37,674 nt of DNA, from the NCBI RefSeq assembly GCF_902762735.1, contig NZ_CACWPP010000081.1:1-37674 (forward strand), written 5' to 3'. The notes beneath the pieces are model-generated. The model saw only the letters and a program-made list of their open reading frames with translations, ran no database searches and had not been told where the DNA came from. This DNA comes from an uncultured Ruminococcus sp. Lineage in GTDB: Bacteria; Bacillota; Clostridia; Oscillospirales; Ruminococcaceae. This document shows, piece after piece, positions 26,915 to 37,674 of the stretch. The position numbers and the translations under genes are program-made. The first letter of the stretch is position 1; every line of letters starts with the position of its first letter.

Positions 26915-27905
26915 CACCAAAAACACCCGCCACATTCCCCGCTCCTTATTTTATCGAACTCCTTTCCGATGCACACCATTCCTCTCTCCCCCAAAAAGAT
27001 ATTTCCCCTTTTACCATCTCTGCCATTTTTATCGACCTTTTTACCGCCCCACACAAAAAACACCGTCCTAAGCCCCCGCACCGCCAACATCGCCCCGCCC
27101 GATTTTTCTCCCCCCCAGCACAAATAAACATTCCCCGCCCCTAATTTTATCGAACATCTTGCCGACACCCCGCCACATTCCCCCTCGCCCAAACAGATAT
27201 TTCCCCTTTTACCATCTCTGCCATTTTTATCAACCTCTTTACCGCCCCACACCAAAACCACCGTCCTAAGCCCCCCGCACCGCCAACAACGCCAACATCG
27301 CCCCGCCCGATTTTCCCCCAGCACAAATAAACATTCCCCGCCCCTTATTTTATCGAACATCTTGCCGATAAACACCATTCCCCTCTCACCCAAACAGATA
27401 TTTCCCCTTTTACCATCTCTGCCATTTTTTATCGACCTTTTTACTGCCCCCACACAAAAAACACCGTCCTAAGCCCCCGCACACCGCCAACAACGCCAAC
27501 ATCGCCCCGCCCGATTTCCCCCCAGCACAAATAAACATTACCCGCCCCTTATTTTATCGAACATCTTGCCGACACCCCGCCACATTTCCTCTCACCCAAA
27601 CAGAAATTTCCCCTTTTACCATCTCTGCCATTTTTATCAACCGTTTTGCCCCCACACCAAAAACGCCGTCCTAAGAACCCCCGCACCGCCAACAACGCCA
27701 ACACCGCCCCGCCCGAGTTTCCTCCCCCAGCACAAATAAACATTACCCGCCCCTTATTTTATCGAACATCTTGCCGATACACACACCATTCCCCTCCCCC
27801 AAACAGATATTTCCCCGTTTACCATCTCCGCCATTTTTATCAACCGTTTTGCCCCCACACAAAAAACCGTCCTAAGCCCCCCGCACCGCCAACAACGCCC
27901 CCAGT
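26915..27905. repeat. Five-copy tandem array of about 200 bp C-rich, G-poor units
   Basis: The anchor ATTTCCCC followed by TTTTACCATCTC recurs at 27001, 27199, 27400, 27606 and 27809, giving periods of 198, 201, 206 and 203. Other constant blocks are CACAAATAAACATT, TTATTTTATCGAACAT, GCCATTTTTATC, CCGTCCTAAG and CGCACCGCC. The plus strand is very rich in C and A with few G. A variable site alternates: units 1, 3 and 5 have CACACCATTCC-type text and units 2 and 4 have CCCCGCCACATT. Indels are not multiples of three overall, and reading frames have no ribosome binding sites, so I treat it as non-coding. It fills the divergent gap between the SLOG and dockerin genes. Confidence 0.9.
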
Positions 27906-28055
27906 CACACCCCCGTCCCCCAGCGTCAGCCCCCCAACTCGCATCACCCTTGCAAACAAAATTTTTCACTTTCAGCCCGCCTGATATAGTTTTAAACTAT
28001 GCCTACCTATAACGTTTTCATATACGCCAATACCGTCAAGTTGAAATAAGCCCAC

Positions 28056-28084
28056 TTGAAAAAAACAAAGCATTATGATATAAT
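28056..28084 (+). promoter_or_regulatory. Promoter of the dockerin/propeller gene
   Basis: TTGAAA (28056-28061), 17 bases, TATAAT (28079-28084). The transcript would start near 28091, just after the tandem array ends. Confidence 0.75.
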
Positions 28085-28143: not shown

Positions 28144-30036
28144 ATGAAAAAAAGATCTGCTAAATTTCTGAGCGCTGTCTGCGCCGCTGTACTGGCTGTC
28201 AATACAGCCGCCGTATCAGCGTTCGCAGAAGATACCACCGATGCAGAAACTGCCCCCTATACCTATGACTGCCCCATCTTCACCGATGCTGATAACGCTG
28301 TGCTGTACTGGGCAACTCAGGTAGGCTGGGATAAAGACTGGTGGACAGATGCACCATCTGGCATAACCGCCGCAGATAACGGCTGCCTCTATGTATGCGC
28401 GGCTGACAGCATCTACAAGCTGGATAAGTACACAGGCGAGATAACAGGCAGCGGCAAGATGGCAGGTCAGGCTTCCTATGCCACCAAAGGACCCGCTTAT
28501 GCCGACGGCAAAGTGTTCATGGCACTGGATAACGGCACTGTTCAGGCTTTTGATGCCGACACGCTCACTTCCCTCTGGATATACAAGAACAAACTGGGCG
28601 GCAGCCCCACCTGCGATATAGCTGTCGATGACGGCAAGATCTACACAGGCTTCTGGAACGGCGAAGAGAACGATGCCGACTACGTCTGCCTCGATACCTC
28701 CGACCCCGATGCGGATACCACCAACGAAGAGATAAATGCTGACTGGGAGTTCACCAACTTAGGCGGCTACTACTGGACAGCTCCCGCTTTCACCGATGAC
28801 TATATCTTCATCGGCAGAGAGAACGGCGTTCCATCTGCCGAAAAAGATGATGCGCTCGGTCTGATAAAGGTAGATAAAAAGACCCGTGAAGCATCACTGC
28901 TCACAGACAGTATAAAGAACGATGTCCGCAGCAAGATAGTAACTTACGGCAATAAGCTGATCTTCACCGACCGCTCGGGCACTCTCTACTCGGTCGATGA
29001 GAAAACAGGTGTCACCTCTTCCTATAAGCTGACAGAACAGCTGGGTCTTGAGGGCTTCACCTGCACCTCCACACCGATAATCGAAAACGACAGAGTATAT
29101 GTTACCCTTAACGGCGCGGGCTGGAACGACTATAACGGCTCGCTGATAGCAGTATTCGACTATGTTGGCGGCGAATTCCCGTTTGAGCTTGCTTATACCG
29201 TTGAAACAAAGAACGCCTGCCAGGCAGACGGCATCTTCGCAGGCGTTGACGCTGACGGCTATAATGTGGTATACTACGTTGAGAACGGCTATCCGGGCAC
29301 TCTCCGTGTGCTGAGGGATAAAAAGGGCATGACAGCCCCCATAAACACAGTCACCGAAACAGATGACAACGGCAAGGAGCATATCTGCCCCGACTTCATT
29401 TTCAAGCCGCAGGGCGAACATGCACAGTACTGCGCGGTAGACCCCGTGTTCGACCCGCAGACAGGTCTTATCTTCGTAAGGAACGACTCATTCAACATTC
29501 TCGCGATAGGTCCTGCCACCGATAAGATAGAGTTCACTGCAAACGACATAGCTACCCACCGCGGCGGCACTGAAACTCTCGTTTACATGGCTGACCAGAC
29601 TCCCACCGACTGCGACTATACGCTGACCGCATGGAACACCACAGGCATATACGACTATGACCCGATGGAGTACACCACTTTCAGCGTTGACAAGTTCACC
29701 ACCGATGACGAGATACTGACTGTTTCTTTCAGATTTGGTCTGTACACAGGCGTGGGCAACGCACCTGAATGCACTACCGATGTTGAAGTGCTGGTAGCCG
29801 AAACAGAAGACCAGTACAAGCGCGCACTGGCACAGCGCGGCGATGTTAACGGCGACGGACGCATAAATGTTACAGATATTTCCATCATCGCTGCAAACGT
29901 CAAGGGTATCAGACCTATCGACAAATACAGCATCAATGCCGCAGATACCAATTCCGACGGCTCGATAAATGTCTCCGACATCGCACTTGCCGCCGCTCAT
30001 GTAAAGAGCATCAGGAAGATAGATAAGGAAAGATAA
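28144..30036 (+). CDS. Secreted beta-propeller protein with C-terminal type I dockerin
   Basis: A 630-residue exported protein. The signal peptide is cleaved after AFA (residue 28). Residues 40 to about 480 are a PQQ-type beta-propeller, seen in repeated blade segments such as GCLYVCAADSIYKLDKYTGE, GKVFMALDNGTVQAFDADTL and GKIYTGFWNGEE. A beta-sandwich-like segment follows. The last 67 residues are a dockerin with two calcium loops, DVNGDGRINVTD (567-578) and DTNSDGSINVSD, each followed by a similar helix. Dockerins plug secreted proteins into cohesin scaffolds. No catalytic motif is visible, so this is probably a binding protein carried on a cellulosome-like complex. GGAG precedes the ATG. 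Confidence 0.88.
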   Translation: MKKRSAKFLSAVCAAVLAVNTAAVSAFAEDTTDAETAPYTYDCPIFTDADNAVLYWATQVGWDKDWWTDAPSGITAADNGCLYVCAADSIYKLDKYTGEITGSGKMAGQASYATKGPAYADGKVFMALDNGTVQAFDADTLTSLWIYKNKLGGSPTCDIAVDDGKIYTGFWNGEENDADYVCLDTSDPDADTTNEEINADWEFTNLGGYYWTAPAFTDDYIFIGRENGVPSAEKDDALGLIKVDKKTREASLLTDSIKNDVRSKIVTYGNKLIFTDRSGTLYSVDEKTGVTSSYKLTEQLGLEGFTCTSTPIIENDRVYVTLNGAGWNDYNGSLIAVFDYVGGEFPFELAYTVETKNACQADGIFAGVDADGYNVVYYVENGYPGTLRVLRDKKGMTAPINTVTETDDNGKEHICPDFIFKPQGEHAQYCAVDPVFDPQTGLIFVRNDSFNILAIGPATDKIEFTANDIATHRGGTETLVYMADQTPTDCDYTLTAWNTTGIYDYDPMEYTTFSVDKFTTDDEILTVSFRFGLYTGVGNAPECTTDVEVLVAETEDQYKRALAQRGDVNGDGRINVTDISIIAANVKGIRPIDKYSINAADTNSDGSINVSDIALAAAHVKSIRKIDKER

Positions 30037-30046
30037 GAAACGTAAT

Positions 30047-30070
30047 ATGCGGCATATCATACAGCCGCAT
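30047..30070 (+). terminator. Weak stem-loop after the dockerin gene
   Basis: ATGCGGC pairs with GCCGCAT around ten bases; TATATAAT follows rather than a T-run. It may end part of the dockerin transcript. A TATAAT at 30073-30078 lacks a good -35 at the proper distance. Confidence 0.35.
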
Positions 30071-30084
30071 TATATAATGCTGAG

Positions 30085-30192
30085 GGCAGAGCGACAAATG
30101 ACTTTACGTGATGCCTGCAAAAACCGTCCCCATCGTGCTTTTGCAGGCTGCGGCAAGGCAGACCTCGTTCTGCCTTTAGGCGTATAAAGGGG
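30085..30192 (+). promoter_or_regulatory. Structured leader with alternative Shine-Dalgarno pairing
   Basis: Hairpin 1 is GCCTGCAAAA (30113-30122) with TTTTGCAGGC (30139-30148). Hairpin 2 is AAGGCAGA (30155-30162) with TCTGCCTT (30169-30176). The CCTTTA at 30173-30178 can instead pair with TAAAGG at 30185-30190, covering the Shine-Dalgarno AAAGGGG (30186-30192). Hairpin 2 and the covering stem use the same CCTT, so they exclude each other. GGGCAGA near 30084-30090 offers a competing partner for TCTGCC. This resembles a translational switch; it matches no riboswitch class I know, and the cobalamin-box core is absent. Confidence 0.5.
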
Positions 30193-30199
30193 CGCTTTT

Positions 30200-32170
30200 A
30201 TGACAAGCTCGAAACAACGCAGAACAACTGTAACAGCTATGGCTGCCGCCGCCGTGCTTATGGTGGGAGGGGTCTGCTTTGGCGCGGGCTTTTACAGAAA
30301 TGCACCACGCTCGCTTGCACCCGCAAAGGTCATTCACCGCGAACCCGACCTGCCTGCGATAACAGTCAGCGGAACTGCCGATAACATCAGCAAAGCCGAT
30401 GAAACGAGCCGTTCACCCGATAGTTCGCGCCCCGACAGCAGTTCACAAGACAGTTCTGAGAAGGAAAGTTCTCTTACGGAGAGCTTTCCCCGCGCAGACA
30501 GCAAAGCGACCGTCCCGACCGACGGCAGCCGCGCCGAGAACATGCAGACAAGCGCCGAAACATTCTATACAGCATCGGAAAGTTCTCACGCCGATAACAG
30601 CACTCTTTCGGACGAAAGCCGCCCCGCTCCAACAGCTGTGCAGGCTGTCCCCGATGCAGGTACACCCGCCAGGACAGCCCCAAGCGGCAAAGAAGCCGAC
30701 CGCGAATACTTCACCACCTCTATAAATGACGGAGAGACTGTCAGCGAAAGCGTGTATTTCTTCACCATCGAGCATCTTGTGAAAGAACTTAAAGTGGTGC
30801 GCTGTGATGTTGAGCTAAACGGCTCTGTGCTGACGGGCTATGCAGGCAAGTGCCGCCTTAAAGACGGCGCGAACAGCATACGTGTCAGCTGTATATATAA
30901 AGACAGCGATAACCGCGTTTACAGAGCATTCCGCGACTACACGGTGAACCTTGTCAGCCCCGACAGCGCCATCTATACCGACCTTACCGACTGCGATGTT
31001 TTTGACAGCACGTTCAGCTTCACAGCCGAATGTGAGGACGGTCTCTCAGTGTGGCTGAACGGTGAACCTGTTGACGGTGACGGGCGCTACACTGTCACCC
31101 TCAGCGAGGGCGAGAACATGATAAGGCTGTCATCGGGCAGGCGCGAGCTGAATTTCTCGGTGACATACATACCCCTGCGCGAACTTGACATCATCACCGA
31201 CCTTACCGACTGCACCGTTTACGGCAGTGAACTTGTTTTCACAGCACAGGCAGTCGGCAGTTCTCCCAAGCTGACCGTACAGCTCAACGGCAAAACACTG
31301 CGCGGTGACGGCGGCATCTATACTGCAAAGCTGAATGACGGTGCGAACAGCATACGTCTGCTTGCCCGTGACGGCGAAAAGCGGGTCGAAAAGACCTTTG
31401 CAGTGACCTGTCTGCCCAAAGCGGAAGAGGGACGTTCGCCCTATATAGCAGATATTAACCTCACAGATAATATGACCGTAAAGGGCAGCAGTTATTCACT
31501 CAGCATCAGAGCTGCCGACTATGAAGGCGGGCGCATCTACGCCGACGGCATAGAAGTTTCCTGCGGCGGCGCATCAGCCGAGCGCAAATGGGAGGACTCG
31601 CAGTCAACGGGCTATCTGCTGAAACTCCGCGCAGGCGAGAACAGCGTGTATATCCGTATAACGGACAGCATCGGCAGAACGTCTGAATTTTACTTCAGCA
31701 TAAACTGCGAAGCGGCAGGCATCGGCGAAGAAGTAGGGCGCATATCCATAAAGGCGCAGGCAGATGTGGTAGGCTTGGGCGTGCTTTGCGAAGATGACAG
31801 CTTTCCCGTTTTAGAGGGCGAAACAGGCTTTGACACTGTGGTGAGATTTCTTGAGAGCAGCGGCTATGAGGTAAGTTCACGCGGCAGCGACAGCAGCAAA
31901 TACCTTGACAGGATATACAAGGAAGGCAGATTTGCGGGCGGTTCACTGACAGATGAAGCACTGGCGTATCTTGAAAGGGCAGGCATAAATGTCAGCAATA
32001 ACGGCACGGCTGATTCGCTGGGCGAATTTGATTATACCGCAGGTTCGGGCTGGCTTTACAGTCGGGGAGGACGAAAGCCGTCCTACGCGATGTCTGCGGC
32101 GGTATTTGCCGACGGCGAAGAGATCGAGCTGAGATTTTCGCTGGACTTCGGCAACGATGTCGGCGGATAA
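30200..32170 (+). CDS. Surface protein with Ig-like modules and C-terminal DUF4430-like domain
   Basis: A 656-residue protein. A basic start and hydrophobic stretch (about 11-31) form a signal or anchor, then a Ser/Asp/Thr-rich linker (50-165). Ig-like modules follow at about 172-251, 258-323, 332-404 and 418-503; the second and third share TDLTDCxVxxSxxxFTA and a LNG..(D)GD..YT pattern. Residues 517-653 resemble DUF4430: GETGFDTVVRFLESSGYEV, YLDRIYKEG, GSGWLYSRGGRKPSYAMS and RFSLDFGNDVGG. DUF4430 is the beta-domain found at the C-terminus of transcobalamin-like proteins. AAAGGGG lies seven bases before the ATG, within a foldable leader. Confidence 0.75.
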   Translation: MTSSKQRRTTVTAMAAAAVLMVGGVCFGAGFYRNAPRSLAPAKVIHREPDLPAITVSGTADNISKADETSRSPDSSRPDSSSQDSSEKESSLTESFPRADSKATVPTDGSRAENMQTSAETFYTASESSHADNSTLSDESRPAPTAVQAVPDAGTPARTAPSGKEADREYFTTSINDGETVSESVYFFTIEHLVKELKVVRCDVELNGSVLTGYAGKCRLKDGANSIRVSCIYKDSDNRVYRAFRDYTVNLVSPDSAIYTDLTDCDVFDSTFSFTAECEDGLSVWLNGEPVDGDGRYTVTLSEGENMIRLSSGRRELNFSVTYIPLRELDIITDLTDCTVYGSELVFTAQAVGSSPKLTVQLNGKTLRGDGGIYTAKLNDGANSIRLLARDGEKRVEKTFAVTCLPKAEEGRSPYIADINLTDNMTVKGSSYSLSIRAADYEGGRIYADGIEVSCGGASAERKWEDSQSTGYLLKLRAGENSVYIRITDSIGRTSEFYFSINCEAAGIGEEVGRISIKAQADVVGLGVLCEDDSFPVLEGETGFDTVVRFLESSGYEVSSRGSDSSKYLDRIYKEGRFAGGSLTDEALAYLERAGINVSNNGTADSLGEFDYTAGSGWLYSRGGRKPSYAMSAAVFADGEEIELRFSLDFGNDVGG

Positions 32171-32204
32171 CTGCAAAGCATGTGCCGCATCACAGACGAT
32201 CTTC

Positions 32205-32320
32205 GTGTGCATCTTATATGCTTTGCGCACTTTCTTTATGGAGTCGGAAGTACTCTTTTTATGGGGCAGCCCCCCTCCCTCCCGCCCGCATAACTCTGTG
32301 CCTTGACCCTTGACATTCTG
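32205..32320. repeat. Interspersed intergenic repeat, copy 2 (family R4)
   Basis: The partner of 37-152, with the same blocks in the same order. It sits between the DUF4430 and toroid genes, followed at 32331 by GATGACCGAATGCATG and heptads. Confidence 0.6.
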
Positions 32321-32342
32321 TCATTATCAAGCGATGACCGAA

Positions 32343-32386
32343 TGCATGTCAATAATTATGCATTATGAATTATGAATTATGAATTT
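32343..32386. repeat. ATTATG(A/C) heptad run before the toroid gene
   Basis: ATGCATGTCAATA leads into a run of ATTATGC/ATTATGA units ending five bases before the CGGAG ribosome binding site of the toroid gene. Confidence 0.85.
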
Positions 32387-32402
32387 ATATCGGAGTGTAC
32401 AT

Positions 32403-33575
32403 ATGAAATTTTTTCCAATAGCATTTTTCTCAGCCCTGCTGTGCCTGTCCCCCCTCAGCGCCGCCGCGCTTGATGTTACTCAGGCAAAAGGCTACGCACA
32501 AGGTATCGTGACCTATGAAAAGGAGATGAACCACATCTCGCCCAACGAAAGCCTGCTGACAGGCAGTATAGCTGAAAACGCAGGCGAGGACAGTTCCGAC
32601 TGGCTGGTAATAGGCGCGGTAAGATACGGGCTGGAGAACGATACTGCCGAATATTACAGCAGCTGGAAAAAGAATATCAATGAAAAGTATACCCATAACG
32701 GAGGTCTGCACCGCATGAAAGCCACCGAATGGCACCGCGCTGTCCTCACATGCCTCTGTCTCGGTGCCGACCCGTCAGACTTGTCTGGGATAGACCTCCT
32801 GCAAGACGGCATTTTCAGCCGCGGAGGTGACAAGCCGCTCGATGCACAAGGGCTTAACGGTCTTGTCTGGGGTCTTATCGCCCTCGACAGCTGTGACTGG
32901 AAAGTTCCCGATGATGCACAGGTCAGCAGACTGGGCATCATCAAGGATATAACGCAGGCGCAGAACAGTGACGGCGGCTTTTCGATGGACAGCGGCGCAG
33001 GCAAAAGCGACCCCGACCTCACCGCGATGGTCTTGCAGTCCCTTGCCCCCTACCGCGAATGCAGTGAGACAAAACAGGTCATATCAGCGGCGCTCAGCTA
33101 TCTTGAAAGTACAAAGGAAGATTTCTCCACCTGCGAAACAAACGCGCAGGTCATCTGCGGGCTGTGCTGTCTCGGCATCGACCCCGACACAGACGAACGT
33201 TTCAGCAGTCTGACAGAAGAACTTGTTAGCTTCGCCAATGACGACGGCGGCTTCGCCCACGAAAAGGGAGGCAAAAGCAGTGAACTTGCATCGGCACAGG
33301 CTCTCATCGCGCTGTGCAGTATCGACAGGCTTCGCGGCGGCGAAAGAAGCATCTACGACATGAACAACGGCGCGCCCGCAGAAATCACCGCCCAAAGCCT
33401 TGTTTCTGCGGCAAACGCCAAAGAGGTCAACACAGAAGCGCCCTGCACAGACGGTCTGCCGTCCCCCATAAAGCATGACAGCGTAAGGTTCAAACTTCTG
33501 CTGATAGCGGCGCTGACCGCAGGAATAACAGTCGCAGTGGTCATCGGCGTGATACTTCGCAGAAAAAGGACCTGA
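32403..33575 (+). CDS. Membrane-anchored alpha/alpha-toroid (prenyltransferase-like repeat) protein
   Basis: A 390-residue protein with signal peptide (KFFPIAFFSALLCLSPLSAAA) and a C-terminal membrane helix (LLLIAALTAGITVAVVIGVIL) with an RRKRT tail, so it is tethered facing outward. The body shows the helix-hairpin repeats of the prenyltransferase/squalene-cyclase toroid: AQNSDGGFSMDSGAGKSDPD, then FANDDGGFAHEKGGKSSELA, each followed by an ALxAL helix. No DxDD or zinc-ligand set is visible, so an enzymatic cyclase role is unlikely. The same fold forms the alpha-domain of transcobalamin and intrinsic factor. I start at ATG 32403, seven bases after CGGAG. Confidence 0.78.
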   Translation: MKFFPIAFFSALLCLSPLSAAALDVTQAKGYAQGIVTYEKEMNHISPNESLLTGSIAENAGEDSSDWLVIGAVRYGLENDTAEYYSSWKKNINEKYTHNGGLHRMKATEWHRAVLTCLCLGADPSDLSGIDLLQDGIFSRGGDKPLDAQGLNGLVWGLIALDSCDWKVPDDAQVSRLGIIKDITQAQNSDGGFSMDSGAGKSDPDLTAMVLQSLAPYRECSETKQVISAALSYLESTKEDFSTCETNAQVICGLCCLGIDPDTDERFSSLTEELVSFANDDGGFAHEKGGKSSELASAQALIALCSIDRLRGGERSIYDMNNGAPAEITAQSLVSAANAKEVNTEAPCTDGLPSPIKHDSVRFKLLLIAALTAGITVAVVIGVILRRKRT

Positions 33576-33599: not shown

Positions 33600-33658
33600 A
33601 AACCCCCGCGACAGGATATACCGCAAACAGCTATCCCCCAAAAAGAAAGGTGAAACTT

Positions 33659-34600
33659 ATGAACGAGATACCCGCAAAGCTGAAAGAAAACCTGACAAGA
33701 GTGATCGTCGGCAAGGACGACACTATCGAAATGCTGATAGCGGCAGTGCTGGCAGGCGGTCATGTGCTTCTGGAAGATGCTCCCGGCACAGGCAAGACCA
33801 CCCTTGCACTGGCACTGGCGAGAAGTCTCGGGCTTAAATTCAAGCGCCTCCAGCTTACCCCAGATACTGTGGCATCAGATATAACAGGCTACTCCGCATA
33901 TGACCCCGCAAAAGGCGAGATGGTCTTTCATGCGGGGGCGGCTATGACAGATCTCCTGCTTGCGGACGAGCTTAACCGCACATCAGGCAGAACTCAGTCT
34001 GCACTGCTGGAAGCTATGGAAGAAGGTCAGCTGACAGTAGACGGCGTGACCTACCCCCTGCCAAAACATTTCACCGTCATCGCCACCCAGAACCCCGTCG
34101 GTACAGCAGGCACAGCGGCTGTCCCCCTATCTCAGCTGGACAGGTTCATGGTGCGGCTGAGTCTTGGTGCGCCCGACAGCAAGTCGCTGAAAAAACTTCT
34201 GACCGACCGCGCATCTGCCGACCCGCTGGACAGCGTGGAACAGGTCTGCGGCGCAGAGGAGCTTTCTGCCATACAGGCAGAAACAGCGGCAGTGGTACTC
34301 AGCGAAGAACTCACCGACTATGTCTGCGCCCTCTGGCAGTCGATAGCCGACAGCCCCGACACCCTCTGCGGGATCTCTCCGCGCGGCGCTCTCGCACTTT
34401 GCAGGATAGCGCGTGCAGGCGCATTCCTTGACGGGCGTGACTACGTTGTACCTTCGGATATAAGGGCATGCTTTGCCGCAGTCTGCGCCCACAGGCTGAC
34501 CCTCACCCGCGAAGCCAAAGCGGCAGGCAGGTCAGCGGAAGATGTGCTTACAGCAGTGCTTAAAGCAGTCCCCTGCCCCGAAAACAGGGGAAATAAATGA
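33659..34600 (+). CDS. MoxR-family AAA+ ATPase
   Basis: A 313-residue MoxR-type chaperone ATPase. Walker A is EDAPGTGKTTLALAL (about 39-53), Walker B is LLLADELNR near residue 100, followed by the sensor region FTVIATQNPVG and the C-terminal lid. MoxR proteins assist assembly or activation of partner proteins and commonly stand before DUF58 genes. I start at ATG 33659 rather than the GTG three codons earlier, because AAAGG lies at proper distance only for the ATG. It overlaps the DUF58 gene by four bases (ATGA). Confidence 0.92.
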   Translation: MNEIPAKLKENLTRVIVGKDDTIEMLIAAVLAGGHVLLEDAPGTGKTTLALALARSLGLKFKRLQLTPDTVASDITGYSAYDPAKGEMVFHAGAAMTDLLLADELNRTSGRTQSALLEAMEEGQLTVDGVTYPLPKHFTVIATQNPVGTAGTAAVPLSQLDRFMVRLSLGAPDSKSLKKLLTDRASADPLDSVEQVCGAEELSAIQAETAAVVLSEELTDYVCALWQSIADSPDTLCGISPRGALALCRIARAGAFLDGRDYVVPSDIRACFAAVCAHRLTLTREAKAAGRSAEDVLTAVLKAVPCPENRGNK

Positions 34601-35511
34601 AGCGGGCGGCATTCATAGCGCTCATCACGGCGGGGCTTATATTGTGGAAGTTTTCTGCGGCAGGGCTTTATCTTGCGGCGGCAGTCATCGCGGCGGGTGT
34701 CATGGCGGCGGCTGAAAATCTGGCTGACAAGGGCGAAGTCAGCGTCAGCTGTGACGAGCTTTTCCCCCAAAAAGGTCACGCCCCCGTGCTGACTTTCGGC
34801 GGCAGAAAACATCTGAAAGGTCGGGTGCTGTGCGAGAACATCGTCACAGGCAAACGCGATGCTTTTGATGTGAAGATCGGCAAAACACGCAGTTTCACCC
34901 TCCCCGCGCAGGCTGACTGCGGCGGGCTGTTCATTCGTTTCGTGCAGTTTTCGCGCTTTGACCTGCTGGGTCTTACGCGGCGCACAGTGGTCTGCCATGC
35001 GGACGGATATATCACCATAATGCCCGAAAACACCGATGTCAGCGCCCTTTTCGACCCGTCATCGGGCGAAGAGGAACTCGACGGCGCACGCGAACTGACA
35101 GGCGGCGAACCTCTGCGGCGGCTGAACTACAAGCTGACCCACCGCTTCGGCAAACCGTATGTGAACATCTACTCGCCCGAAAATGCGGGGGATATATGGC
35201 TTTTCGGTGACTACGGGCTGGCTGGCGGCGCGGCAGATGCGGCAGAAAAACTCTGTGCGCTGGCGGCATTTCTCGAAGAGCGCGGCGTTCCTTACGGGCT
35301 GGCACTGCCCTGCGGCGAAAATGATGTTCAGCTGACCGACCGCGCAGACAGCGAGAGCGTCCTGCAAGAGGTACTGCACTTCCCGCTTTATTCCTGCGAG
35401 GGTCACAGCGTACTGCCCACACTGATGACCCGCCTGCCCGATGATGTGCAGGTGCTTGCATTCACCCGCAATACTGCCTTTGAAGACGACCGCGTGACGA
35501 TACTGCAATAA
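34597..35511 (+). CDS. DUF58 family protein
   Basis: A 304-residue protein. Two closely spaced hydrophobic segments at the N-terminus (about 4-38) anchor it. The DUF58 core is visible at GARELTGGEPLRRLNYKLTHR (shown as its hallmark R-GD-L-R-Y-type block) followed by PYVNIYSPE. The C-terminal part resembles a von Willebrand A-like fold, but the MIDAS residues are not evident. DUF58 proteins accompany MoxR ATPases and are thought to be their clients. Start codon overlaps the MoxR stop. Confidence 0.85.
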   Translation: MKRAAFIALITAGLILWKFSAAGLYLAAAVIAAGVMAAAENLADKGEVSVSCDELFPQKGHAPVLTFGGRKHLKGRVLCENIVTGKRDAFDVKIGKTRSFTLPAQADCGGLFIRFVQFSRFDLLGLTRRTVVCHADGYITIMPENTDVSALFDPSSGEEELDGARELTGGEPLRRLNYKLTHRFGKPYVNIYSPENAGDIWLFGDYGLAGGAADAAEKLCALAAFLEERGVPYGLALPCGENDVQLTDRADSESVLQEVLHFPLYSCEGHSVLPTLMTRLPDDVQVLAFTRNTAFEDDRVTILQ

Positions 35512-35570: not shown

Positions 35571-37361
35571 ATGAAAAACAGGCGTGACTTTCCTGCCGCA
35601 CTGATATTCGCAGTCGCGGCGGGGCTTTTGGTCTATATGCTGTCGGTGGTGACTGCGGGTGCGTCAGCCCTGCTTTTGTGTACCCTCACGGCGGCGGCAT
35701 CTAACAAATTCGGGCGGCTTTGGGGACTTGCACCTGCTGTCTGCGCAGTGGCGGCGGCAGTGGTCTTTCGCGGCGAATTTATGGCAGAATGCGCCCTCTG
35801 CGCCGATGAATTTGCCTACCGCACAGCGGTCAGGGCGCAGACTCTCTATGCCCCCGTTACGGGCGCGGCAGACAGCGCGTGGCTTGTCCTGCTTGCATTC
35901 TGCGGGGCGGCATGTGCGGTGTATGCGGCTTTCGGCGCGAGGGGCTTCTGCCTTACAGCGGCATTGTGCGCGGCGGCGGCAGAATTTTTCATGGACGTTC
36001 CCGCATGGGCGCTGTGTACACTCATCGGGCTGACGGTCGGTGCGTTGTGCTTTGGCGAAAAGGGTGGAAAAGCCTTGCTTTTAACGGCACTGACCGCTCT
36101 GCTGACAGCACCCGCATCACTGCTTGCTTTCCCCGAAACTCCCCCGAAAGGCGAAGTCACCGCATCGGGCGGTCTGCCCCTTTATCTGGCAGAAGAATAT
36201 GAGCGCGCCGACCTGACAAAAAGCGAATACGCGCGTGCTTCTGCCATATTCTTAGCACTTAAAGAACAGGGCTTCGACCCGAACATGCAGTCGGGTCTGC
36301 TTATCGAAGCGGCAGGCGAAGAACTCCCCCTTGACGATGTGACCGCACCCAAGGGTTATCAGCCCGCAAACATCTGCGCGGCTGACAGCGGCAGAACACA
36401 GGTCTGCCGACAGTTCGGTGAGAACGTCTTTCTGCTCATCACAAAGCTGAAAAGCGGCAAATATCTGGACTGTGAGGGGCTTTACAGAGAGTATGTCTAC
36501 TCAGCCTACGGCAAGCTGACCGCTGACGAACAGCGCGAAATGGAAGAAAAATTCGGCATTGACGGCACTCTGCCCCTTGACCGCAAGCTGGCGGCTGTGA
36601 AGTCGGGCATAAACGCGAAAGTCACCGATGAGAGCGAGCGTTCACCCCTTACCGTTAAACTGGCGCGAAGCTGCGGTCTGGCGGCGCGTGAAGTGCGCGG
36701 CGTTTACTTTGGCGCGATGCCTGCAAGCGGCAGGGCTGACCTTTCGGAGGGCGAACAGAGAAGCTGGGTGGAAGTCTACATAGACGGCGCAGGCTGGGCA
36801 GTTTTTGAGAGCAAGCCCGAATATGCGGGCGCATCTCCCCTGCTGCCCGAAGGTGCATCACCTGACAGCGAAAGCACATTCAGTGACAGCGCAGAACAGT
36901 ACATCTACGCCGCCGCGCCGCCCCGCACAGCGGCAGAGATACGTACCCCCGATAAGGCGAAAAAGCCCTCACCGACATGGGCTTTACTGCCTGCGGGCGC
37001 GGTCATTCTTCTTGTCTTTGCGGGTCGTGCAAGGGCTTTTGTGAGATGGCGAAAGCGCTCTTCAAAGGACTTCGGCAAAGCTGTGACAGCCTCGCATTTT
37101 CAGGGCAGAGAACTTCTTTCAGCGGCGCTTTGCATCAGCGAAAACCTCCCCCCCGAAGAAGCCGCATCACAGCTTGACGGTCTCCTGCGCACCCGTTTCG
37201 AGCGCTCGGAGCGGGCATTCGAGCGCATGCGCTTTTCCAACCGCGCCGCAGACGAAGAGTCAGCAAAATGCGCGGCAAAATTCCACAAAGAAGCGCAGAC
37301 AGCCGCAAAAAAATGCGGCTTGCGCAAGCGTTTCGCACTGTGGCTGAAAGGTCTTGTCTGA
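35571..37361 (+). CDS. Membrane transglutaminase-like protein without the catalytic triad
   Basis: A 596-residue protein. About six membrane segments fill the first 195 residues, an outer domain follows, then a single helix near 468-487 (LLPAGAVILLVFAGRA) and a cytoplasmic C-terminus. The outer part aligns with the transglutaminase core: SPLTVKLARSCGLAAREVRG, RSWVEVYIDGAGWAVFESKP. The family pattern there is GxC.., HAWVEVY and FDPTP. Cys is absent from its place, His is Arg and Asp is Glu, so it is probably a non-catalytic relative. AGGAGAAACC precedes the ATG. It closes the MoxR-DUF58-transglutaminase set. Confidence 0.82.
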   Translation: MKNRRDFPAALIFAVAAGLLVYMLSVVTAGASALLLCTLTAAASNKFGRLWGLAPAVCAVAAAVVFRGEFMAECALCADEFAYRTAVRAQTLYAPVTGAADSAWLVLLAFCGAACAVYAAFGARGFCLTAALCAAAAEFFMDVPAWALCTLIGLTVGALCFGEKGGKALLLTALTALLTAPASLLAFPETPPKGEVTASGGLPLYLAEEYERADLTKSEYARASAIFLALKEQGFDPNMQSGLLIEAAGEELPLDDVTAPKGYQPANICAADSGRTQVCRQFGENVFLLITKLKSGKYLDCEGLYREYVYSAYGKLTADEQREMEEKFGIDGTLPLDRKLAAVKSGINAKVTDESERSPLTVKLARSCGLAAREVRGVYFGAMPASGRADLSEGEQRSWVEVYIDGAGWAVFESKPEYAGASPLLPEGASPDSESTFSDSAEQYIYAAAPPRTAAEIRTPDKAKKPSPTWALLPAGAVILLVFAGRARAFVRWRKRSSKDFGKAVTASHFQGRELLSAALCISENLPPEEAASQLDGLLRTRFERSERAFERMRFSNRAADEESAKCAAKFHKEAQTAAKKCGLRKRFALWLKGLV

Positions 37362-37374
37362 ACGCACGAAAATG

Positions 37375-37674
37375 CCCCGATCCATCAACACTCACACCGC
37401 ATAAATGTTGAAAAACAGGCTATGCGCGGCAGTTTCGGGCAGAGTGCAGGCAGTCCGATGATATGCGGGCGCATAACTTCCCAAAACGCCCCGAATTATC
37501 AACATTTGCGGCTGAAAAATGTTGAAAGATCGGCGCATTCGGAAATTCACAATATCGGGCGCATGACAGCCCCACAAAACTCCCCCGATCCATCAACACT
37601 CACATCAAGAAAATGTTGAAAAACAGGCTATGCGCGGCAGTTTCGGGCAGAGTGCAGGCAGTCCGATGATATGC
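37375..37674. repeat. Direct repeat with CAACA/TGTTG stems, running off the window
   Basis: Bases 37375-37466 recur at 37583-37674 with a few changes near CTCACA; both contain GTTGAAAAACAGGCTATGCG and CAGTTTCGGGCAGAGTGC. Between them a diverged third segment (37490-37560) has CAACATTT/AAATGTTG arms. The paired CAACA..TGTTG is kept in all three. The array may continue beyond the edge. No gene is visible from 37362 to the end. Confidence 0.8.

What the first reader, a model, noticed from the sequence alone, without database searches (positions are those of the whole stretch)
28144..33575. Transcobalamin-like surface module split over three adjacent genes, one carrying a dockerin
A beta-propeller with a dockerin, an Ig-like/DUF4430 protein and an alpha/alpha-toroid membrane protein are neighbours on one strand. 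Toroid plus DUF4430-like beta-domain is the two-domain build of transcobalamin and intrinsic factor. I also recall Firmicutes surface proteins that combine this type of propeller with DUF4430 in one chain (unchecked recollection). Here the parts are separate: one released and able to dock on a cohesin, two membrane-held. This could be a corrinoid or other small-ligand capture system linked to a cellulosome. The ligand is conjecture; the domain set is seen.
Basis: partly seen in the sequence, partly recalled or inferred. Interest (0 to 1): 0.82.

Follow-up and report, generated by a model that had tools for sequence, protein, structure and literature searches.

The report
Split transcobalamin-like vitamin B12 uptake operon
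A rumen-type bacterium carries a surface system, built from the same two protein folds that carry vitamin B12 in human blood and stomach, that very probably catches B12-like molecules and hands them to a membrane pump, with one part bearing a plug of the kind used by cellulose-digesting protein complexes.

The parts
27986..28000 (.). Palindrome ATAGTTTTAAACTAT; with its neighbours 15 of 16 positions of the streptococcal MET box TATAGTTTnAAACTATA
   Evidence: core present upstream of 9 of 9 dockerin-type operons; consensus from PMC5359408 and PMC2627894 (passages)
28056..28084 (+). Sigma-70-like promoter TTGAAA-17-TATAAT with TG before the -10 hexamer; would leave a leader of only about 55 nt
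   Evidence: 11 of 12 matches; a consensus match only
28144..30036 (+). Propeller protein, 630 aa, signal peptide, PQQ-type beta-propeller, C-terminal type I dockerin (about aa 566-615)
   Evidence: PQQ_2, Dockerin_1; orthologue alignment
30200..32170 (+). Ig-like/SLBB protein, 656 aa, N-terminal membrane segment, Ser/Thr-rich linker, Ig/cadherin-like domains, C-terminal transcobalamin-type beta-grasp domain
31721..32167 (+). Transcobalamin-type beta-grasp (SLBB/DUF4430) domain, the stretch modelled
32379..33575 (+). Alpha/alpha toroid protein, 398 aa, signal peptide and C-terminal membrane helix (aa about 374-392); the ATG at 32403 is an alternative start
33650..34600 (+). MoxR-type AAA+ ATPase
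   Evidence: AAA_3 166 bits
34597..35511 (+). DUF58-like membrane protein (diverged; no Pfam hit itself)
   Evidence: no hit; 4 of 6 relatives tested reach DUF58, all below its cut-off (best 22.4 of 23.4 bits)
35571..37361 (+). Multi-pass membrane protein with transglutaminase-like domain
   Evidence: (Transglut_core 27.4 bits, cut-off 23)
37592..37674 (.). Contig end inside a direct repeat of about 100 bp; 100% identical over 83 nt to the start of contig C116, which carries DUF4430-EcfT-EcfAA-EcfS

Best explanation
The three genes are the extracellular capture part of a corrinoid (vitamin B12-type cofactor) uptake operon. Toroid and SLBB protein, both membrane-held, would close on one corrinoid between them as the two domains of transcobalamin do, but as two chains. 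The ligand would pass, perhaps through the second small membrane-held DUF4430 protein, to the CbrT-like S-component of the ECF transporter encoded downstream and be imported with ATP. The secreted propeller with its dockerin is an accessory surface part, held by a cohesin or another surface partner, and may itself bind corrinoid, as the unrelated propeller BtuG does in Bacteroides. MoxR, DUF58-like and transglutaminase proteins would mature or assemble the surface complex. The imported corrinoid serves B12-dependent methionine synthase, hence control by a MET box in this clade. Shown by computation: domain identities, operon structure, conservation, riboswitches in relatives, MET box, MetH present, CbiD absent. 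Inferred: corrinoid binding, two-chain closure, hand-over, propeller role, the regulator that reads the MET box, and the role of MoxR/DUF58/transglutaminase.
Confidence: 0.82

Rival explanations
1. Uptake system for another vitamin or cofactor precursor (for example riboflavin or cobalt), with the transcobalamin-like fold reused for that ligand.
For: S-component reaches Pfam's riboflavin S-component family over cut-off (41.8 bits); EcfT is weakly CbiQ-like (20.0 bits, below cut-off). Burroughs 2007 suggests that archaeal SLBB proteins may bind another metabolite.
Against: Riboswitches before homologous operons are of the cobalamin type, and no FMN switch was reported in the loci scanned; best solved S-component is that of ECF-CbrT; the MET box points to methionine synthesis, where B12 is a cofactor.
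Confidence: 0.07
2. The toroid is an enzyme (terpene-cyclase or prenyltransferase type) acting outside the cell, and the neighbours are unrelated surface proteins.
Against: Predicted to be secreted and membrane-held; SLBB contact in 75 of 79 loci and at least two ECF genes in 59 of 79; riboswitch control in relatives; 3 of 67 members match PF01122.
Confidence: 0.03
3. Corrinoid uptake is done by the toroid, SLBB and ECF parts alone; the dockerin-propeller is a cell-wall or polysaccharide-binding tether with no ligand role.
For: Propeller genes occur in only 25 of 79 loci, so capture works without them; Burroughs 2007 reads such domains as tethers; no BtuG chain among the 22 solved sequences matched at E<=0.01.
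Against: The propeller is the first gene of the operon in 12 of 12 genus loci whose contig covers that end; acidic core, pI 4.1, which recalls the negatively charged face of BtuG2 (PMC10404256, passages).
Confidence: 0.45

Closest known systems
SLBB transcobalamin-like clade with CbiO/CbiQ operons (Burroughs et al. 2007, PMC1796856; passages and section 7 part 1 read)
   Same: Toroid+SLBB, Ig+SLBB and propeller+SLBB architectures, second paralogous SLBB protein, ABC/ECF genes, predicted B12 scavenging
   Different: The parts read mention no dockerin, no MoxR/DUF58/transglutaminase genes, no riboswitch and no MET box for this clade; here toroid and SLBB are separate chains
Transcobalamin, intrinsic factor and haptocorrin of animals
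   Same: Alpha/alpha toroid and beta-grasp domain of the same folds
   Different: One secreted chain there; two membrane-held chains here; B12 binding here not tested
ECF-CbrT of Lactobacillus delbrueckii (PMC5997447, passages read)
   Same: Homologous S-component (E 1.1e-7), EcfT and two ATPase domains
   Different: Here a dedicated EcfT-EcfAA set sits in the operon and extracellular capture proteins precede it
BtuG of Bacteroides (PMC6143338 and PMC10404256, passages read)
   Same: Surface beta-propeller linked to B12 uptake
   Different: BtuG is a lipoprotein working with the outer membrane transporter BtuB; this one is a PQQ/BamB-type propeller with a dockerin, in a Gram-positive lineage; analogy only
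Streptococcal MtaR/CmhR MET-box regulon (PMC2627894, PMC5359408, passages read)
   Same: Palindrome TATAGTTTnAAACTATA in front of metE/metF genes
   Different: Here in Ruminococcus and also in front of a corrinoid uptake operon; the regulator was not identified
MetJ regulon of gamma-proteobacteria, predicted to include the cobalamin transporter gene btuB (PMC4239095, passages)
   Same: A methionine regulon that takes in a B12 uptake gene
   Different: Other regulator, other box, other transporter

Membership tests
SLBB transcobalamin-like clade (DUF4430) | Profile match to PF14478 | tested here: inconclusive
   Window domain 13.0 bits, below 23.8; 34 of 40 aligned members hit at E<=0.01; L032 orthologue 27.2 bits, over cut-off
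[quoted passage not shown]
SLBB transcobalamin-like clade (DUF4430) | Extracellular protein in an operon with CbiO/CbiQ-like genes | tested here: met
   (on the adjoining contig in the own genome; unbroken in relatives; extracellular by hydropathy only)
Transcobalamin/intrinsic factor two-domain carrier | Toroid and beta-grasp domain in one chain | tested here: not met
   Separate genes here; one chain in 9 of 79 named loci and in 5 of 18 genus loci (Pfam read in L036 and L038 only, toroid part below cut-off)
Transcobalamin/intrinsic factor two-domain carrier | Toroid related to PF01122 | tested here: inconclusive
Transcobalamin/intrinsic factor two-domain carrier | Binds cobalamin between the two domains | not testable with these tools
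   No complex prediction or binding assay
CbrT-type cobalamin ECF transporter | S-component homologous to CbrT | tested here: met
   Chain A of 6FNP best PDB match, E 1.1e-7 over 165 residues; that chain A is CbrT is taken from its length, the S-component match and the entry being ECF-CbrT
CbrT-type cobalamin ECF transporter | Transports cobalamin | not testable with these tools
   Sequence only
Cobalamin-riboswitch regulated operon | RF00174 upstream of the operon | tested here: not met
   None before the window operon; in relatives met in L031-L033, in 25 of 29 named loci scanned directly, 22 of them preselected, and by placement in 42 of 78
MET-box regulon | TATAGTTTnAAACTATA in the promoter region | tested here: met
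   15 of 16 positions in the window; 9 of 9 dockerin-type operons carry the core
MET-box regulon | LysR-type MtaR/CmhR regulator binds the site | not tested
   Regulator not sought
Cellulosome component | Type I dockerin with two calcium-binding loops | tested here: met
   38.6 bits; DVNGDGRINVTD and DTNSDGSINVSD in the sequence
Cellulosome component | Cohesin-bearing scaffold in the genome that takes this dockerin | tested here: inconclusive
   One secreted cohesin protein (39.3 bits, 35.9) and one membrane-held borderline candidate (25.1 bits, 23.1; cut-off 24.1); pairing not testable
BtuG | Surface lipoprotein propeller of the BtuG family beside btuB | tested here: not met
   No lipobox-like motif in the first 40 residues; no btuB among the neighbours read; sequence profile finds BamB and quinoproteins, not BtuG

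The most novel reading that the evidence does not exclude
A three-part Gram-positive corrinoid trap: a propeller that itself binds corrinoid (convergent with BtuG) is docked through dockerin-cohesin contact on the surface of a fibre-degrading bacterium, next to a transcobalamin split into two membrane-held chains, so that vitamin capture shares the plug-in logic of the cellulosome. Its control has moved from a cobalamin riboswitch to a methionine MET box in the same genus, with R. bicirculans 80/3 perhaps showing both.
Probability: 0.3. Interest if true: 0.8.

Novelty: new variant of a known kind. Interest (0 to 1): 0.63.

Why it matters
B12-type cofactors are contested goods in gut and rumen. 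Surface capture is shown in Bacteroides (BtuG, passages of PMC6143338; BtuH, abstract listing of PMC8941943). For Gram-positive gut bacteria my ten searches listed no experiment on the transcobalamin-like capture predicted in 2007. The evidence here makes it directly testable with defined proteins and a defined ligand, and bears on the proposed bacterial origin of our own B12 carriers. A dockerin on a vitamin-capture protein would extend dockerin use beyond fibre breakdown, and the change from riboswitch to MET box inside one genus would be an instructive case of regulatory replacement.

Tried and rejected
Riboswitch in front of the window operon: searched at gathering and at E<=5, none; the predicted leader of about 55 nt is too short. 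The whole-genome search scored 60 of 130 first-look candidates of the own genome, so absence there is not absolute. The MET-box-for-riboswitch story is not a clean swap: R. bicirculans 80/3 (L034) has a sub-threshold riboswitch (27.7 bits) and a 15 of 16 MET box, L031 a 13 of 16 box.

Riboswitch counts: places were laid on loci by coordinates and strand, without contig names (for the first 50 loci, for 78 of 79; L111 not held). Twenty-two loci were then picked for direct scans because one search had placed a switch there: 21 confirmed over gathering, among them L071, missed and found; L055 gave only an AdoCbl-II match below its gathering score. Seven further loci had not been placed beforehand: 4 found; L095, L096 and L100 not. 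Of the 36 misses, 8 are the R. albus-type loci L040-L047, and several contigs end before the operon.

Toroid as transcobalamin by solved sequences: profiles A1 and A4 found cyclases and transferases, not transcobalamin; profile A5 found transcobalamin only at E 0.082, so the SLBB claim rests on fold and on relatives' Pfam hits. DUF58 name: no Pfam hit for the window protein, relatives only below cut-off. MoxR/DUF58/transglutaminase as assembly factors is inference from recalled knowledge of such clusters. Only one corrin-ring gene (CbiD) was tested for auxotrophy.

Literature: 10 searches. Dockerin + cobalamin + Ruminococcus gave 3 papers, seen as a listing only; cobalamin + ECF transporter + Ruminococcus + riboswitch gave none; four of six combined terms gave none. 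I claim no more absence than that.
Full report

THE OPERON IS LARGER. Three more genes follow on the same strand: MoxR AAA+ (33650-34600), a DUF58-like protein (34597-35511) and a transglutaminase-like membrane protein (35571-37361). The window is C81:1-37674 of the own genome. Its last 83 nt are identical to the first 83 nt of contig C116, inside a direct repeat of about 100 bp that explains the assembly break. C116 goes on with a second DUF4430 protein (55.7 bits), EcfT, a fused double EcfA and an S-component. In R. albus 8 (L042, on a contig of the same length, 209896 bases, as L022 of the unnamed set) the ten genes run unbroken.

CONSERVATION. In the genus, 19 of 29 genomes match the toroid, the own one included. 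I read the 18 other loci. Thirteen (L022-L034) have the operon; the propeller is missing only in L023, whose contig ends there, the downstream ECF genes only in L024, also at a contig end, and in L032 DUF58 and TGase share one ORF. The other five (L035-L039) encode one protein that matches both the toroid query and the DUF4430-type HMM; Pfam, read for L036 and L038, gives DUF4430 over and the toroid below cut-off. ECF genes follow in L036, L038 and L039, and EcfT with the start of EcfA in L035; L037 ends at its contig end. In a wider scan with the toroid alone, 330 stretches encoded a relative and the best 80 were kept, giving 79 loci, mostly Clostridia with a few Bacilli. Of these 79, 75 have an SLBB domain fused (9) or in the next recognised gene within 400 nt; 59 have at least two ECF genes, 33 at least two of MoxR/DUF58/TGase, 25 a propeller. 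Contig ends lower these counts.

LIGAND. (a) Cobalamin riboswitches. Laid on the loci by coordinates and strand, one stands within 700 nt before a recognised operon gene in 42 of 78 named loci (L111 not held; several contigs end before the operon; 8 of the 36 misses are the R. albus-type loci). Scanned directly, 25 of 29 loci have one over the gathering score (distances of 24 of them 8-665 nt). Twenty-two of the 29 were picked because one search had placed a switch there (21 confirmed, L055 not); the other seven were not picked so (4 found; L095, L096, L100 not). In the genus, 5 of 29 genomes have a match at E<=0.1 and 4 of these 5 sites stand before this operon, one of them below the gathering score. 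At genome level 41 of 50 and 26 of 27 genomes reached through the loci have a match. (b) The S-component's best solved match is chain A of 6FNP (E 1.1e-7), the entry being ECF-CbrT, shown to import cobalamin and cobinamide (PMC5997447, passages). (c) The own genome has MetH (B12-binding cap 53 bits; reactivation domain 28.3 bits) and no CbiD; the only genus genome with CbiD, G010, lacks the toroid and holds the fifth riboswitch. (d) The 2007 SLBB paper had already predicted B12 scavenging for such operons on context (PMC1796856, section 7 part 1).

REGULATION IN THIS CLADE. No cobalamin riboswitch was found before the window operon or in the own genome (60 of 130 candidates scored). A 15-bp palindrome, ATAGYTTWAARCTAT, stands upstream of the propeller gene in 9 of 9 dockerin-type operons whose upstream DNA is held; 0 of 18000 shuffled upstream regions had it. 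It is the core of the streptococcal MET box TATAGTTTnAAACTATA (PMC2627894 and PMC5359408, passages); the window has 15 of 16 positions. Exact sites in the 29 genomes number 20, in 12 genomes, against 2 for the reversed control pattern. Nine are these operons. The other eleven lie by metF (6), metE (3, one with an IS1595 transposase gene in between and a LacI-type regulator gene on the other side), metH (1) and a sulfonate/taurine-type transporter (1) (NCBIfam names for five of the eleven loci; the rest by likeness to those). In L034 (R. bicirculans 80/3; L051 in the named set) a 15 of 16 box occurs besides the sub-threshold riboswitch. So the operon appears to have moved into the methionine regulon, which fits a corrinoid used by MetH. 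That a methionine regulon can take in B12 uptake has a precedent: btuB in predicted MetJ regulons of gamma-proteobacteria (PMC4239095, passages).

ANCHORING. Among 13 aligned propellers 9 end in a dockerin and 4 (L031-L034) in an NPxTG-like sortase signal (read from the alignment; checked by profile only for the window's dockerin, and for L032, where NPXTG scores 16.2 bits, below its 23.5 cut-off). The propeller therefore seems to be a surface-held part whose holding device is exchangeable. The genome has 60 dockerin places at E<=0.001, 59 of them over cut-off, but one clear cohesin protein and one borderline (25.1 bits, 23.1; cut-off 24.1), so the dockerin's partner is open, and 'cellulosome' is not shown. 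The acidic propeller core (pI 4.1) recalls the negatively charged face of BtuG2 (PMC10404256, passages), which is analogy only.

MECHANISM AND STATUS. Best reading: toroid and SLBB protein act as a two-chain transcobalamin at the membrane and pass corrinoid to a CbrT-like ECF transporter; the propeller is an accessory capture or tether part; MoxR, DUF58-like and transglutaminase proteins help assembly. Fold, operon, regulation and conservation are computed results; binding, hand-over and assembly are inference. The kind of system is known as a prediction since 2007; this is a new variant.

Noticed in passing
window 26932-27899: Tandem array, 203-bp unit, 4.8 copies, 87% matches, strongly C-rich on the + strand, in the intergenic stretch before the operon.
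   Followed up: no
window 37365-37674 and L153:1-83: Direct repeat of about 100 bp after the transglutaminase gene, at which the assembly breaks between C81 and C116.
   Followed up: partly
   Followed up: no
L147:4085 (own genome C140): MET-box palindrome near a contig end next to a sulfonate/taurine-type ABC transporter, hinting at sulfur supply in the same regulon.
   Followed up: partly
L038:8187-9206 and L036:8096-9145: Before the toroid-DUF4430 fusion lies a predicted secreted protein of about 340 aa with a DTDGDGALTVSDAL stretch that looks like a single dockerin- or EF-hand-type loop.
   Followed up: no
L056, L061-L063, L065, L068, L080, L085: Very large upstream genes (about 1050-2060 aa) that carry another toroid domain stand before the SLBB-toroid pair in these relatives' operons.
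   Followed up: no
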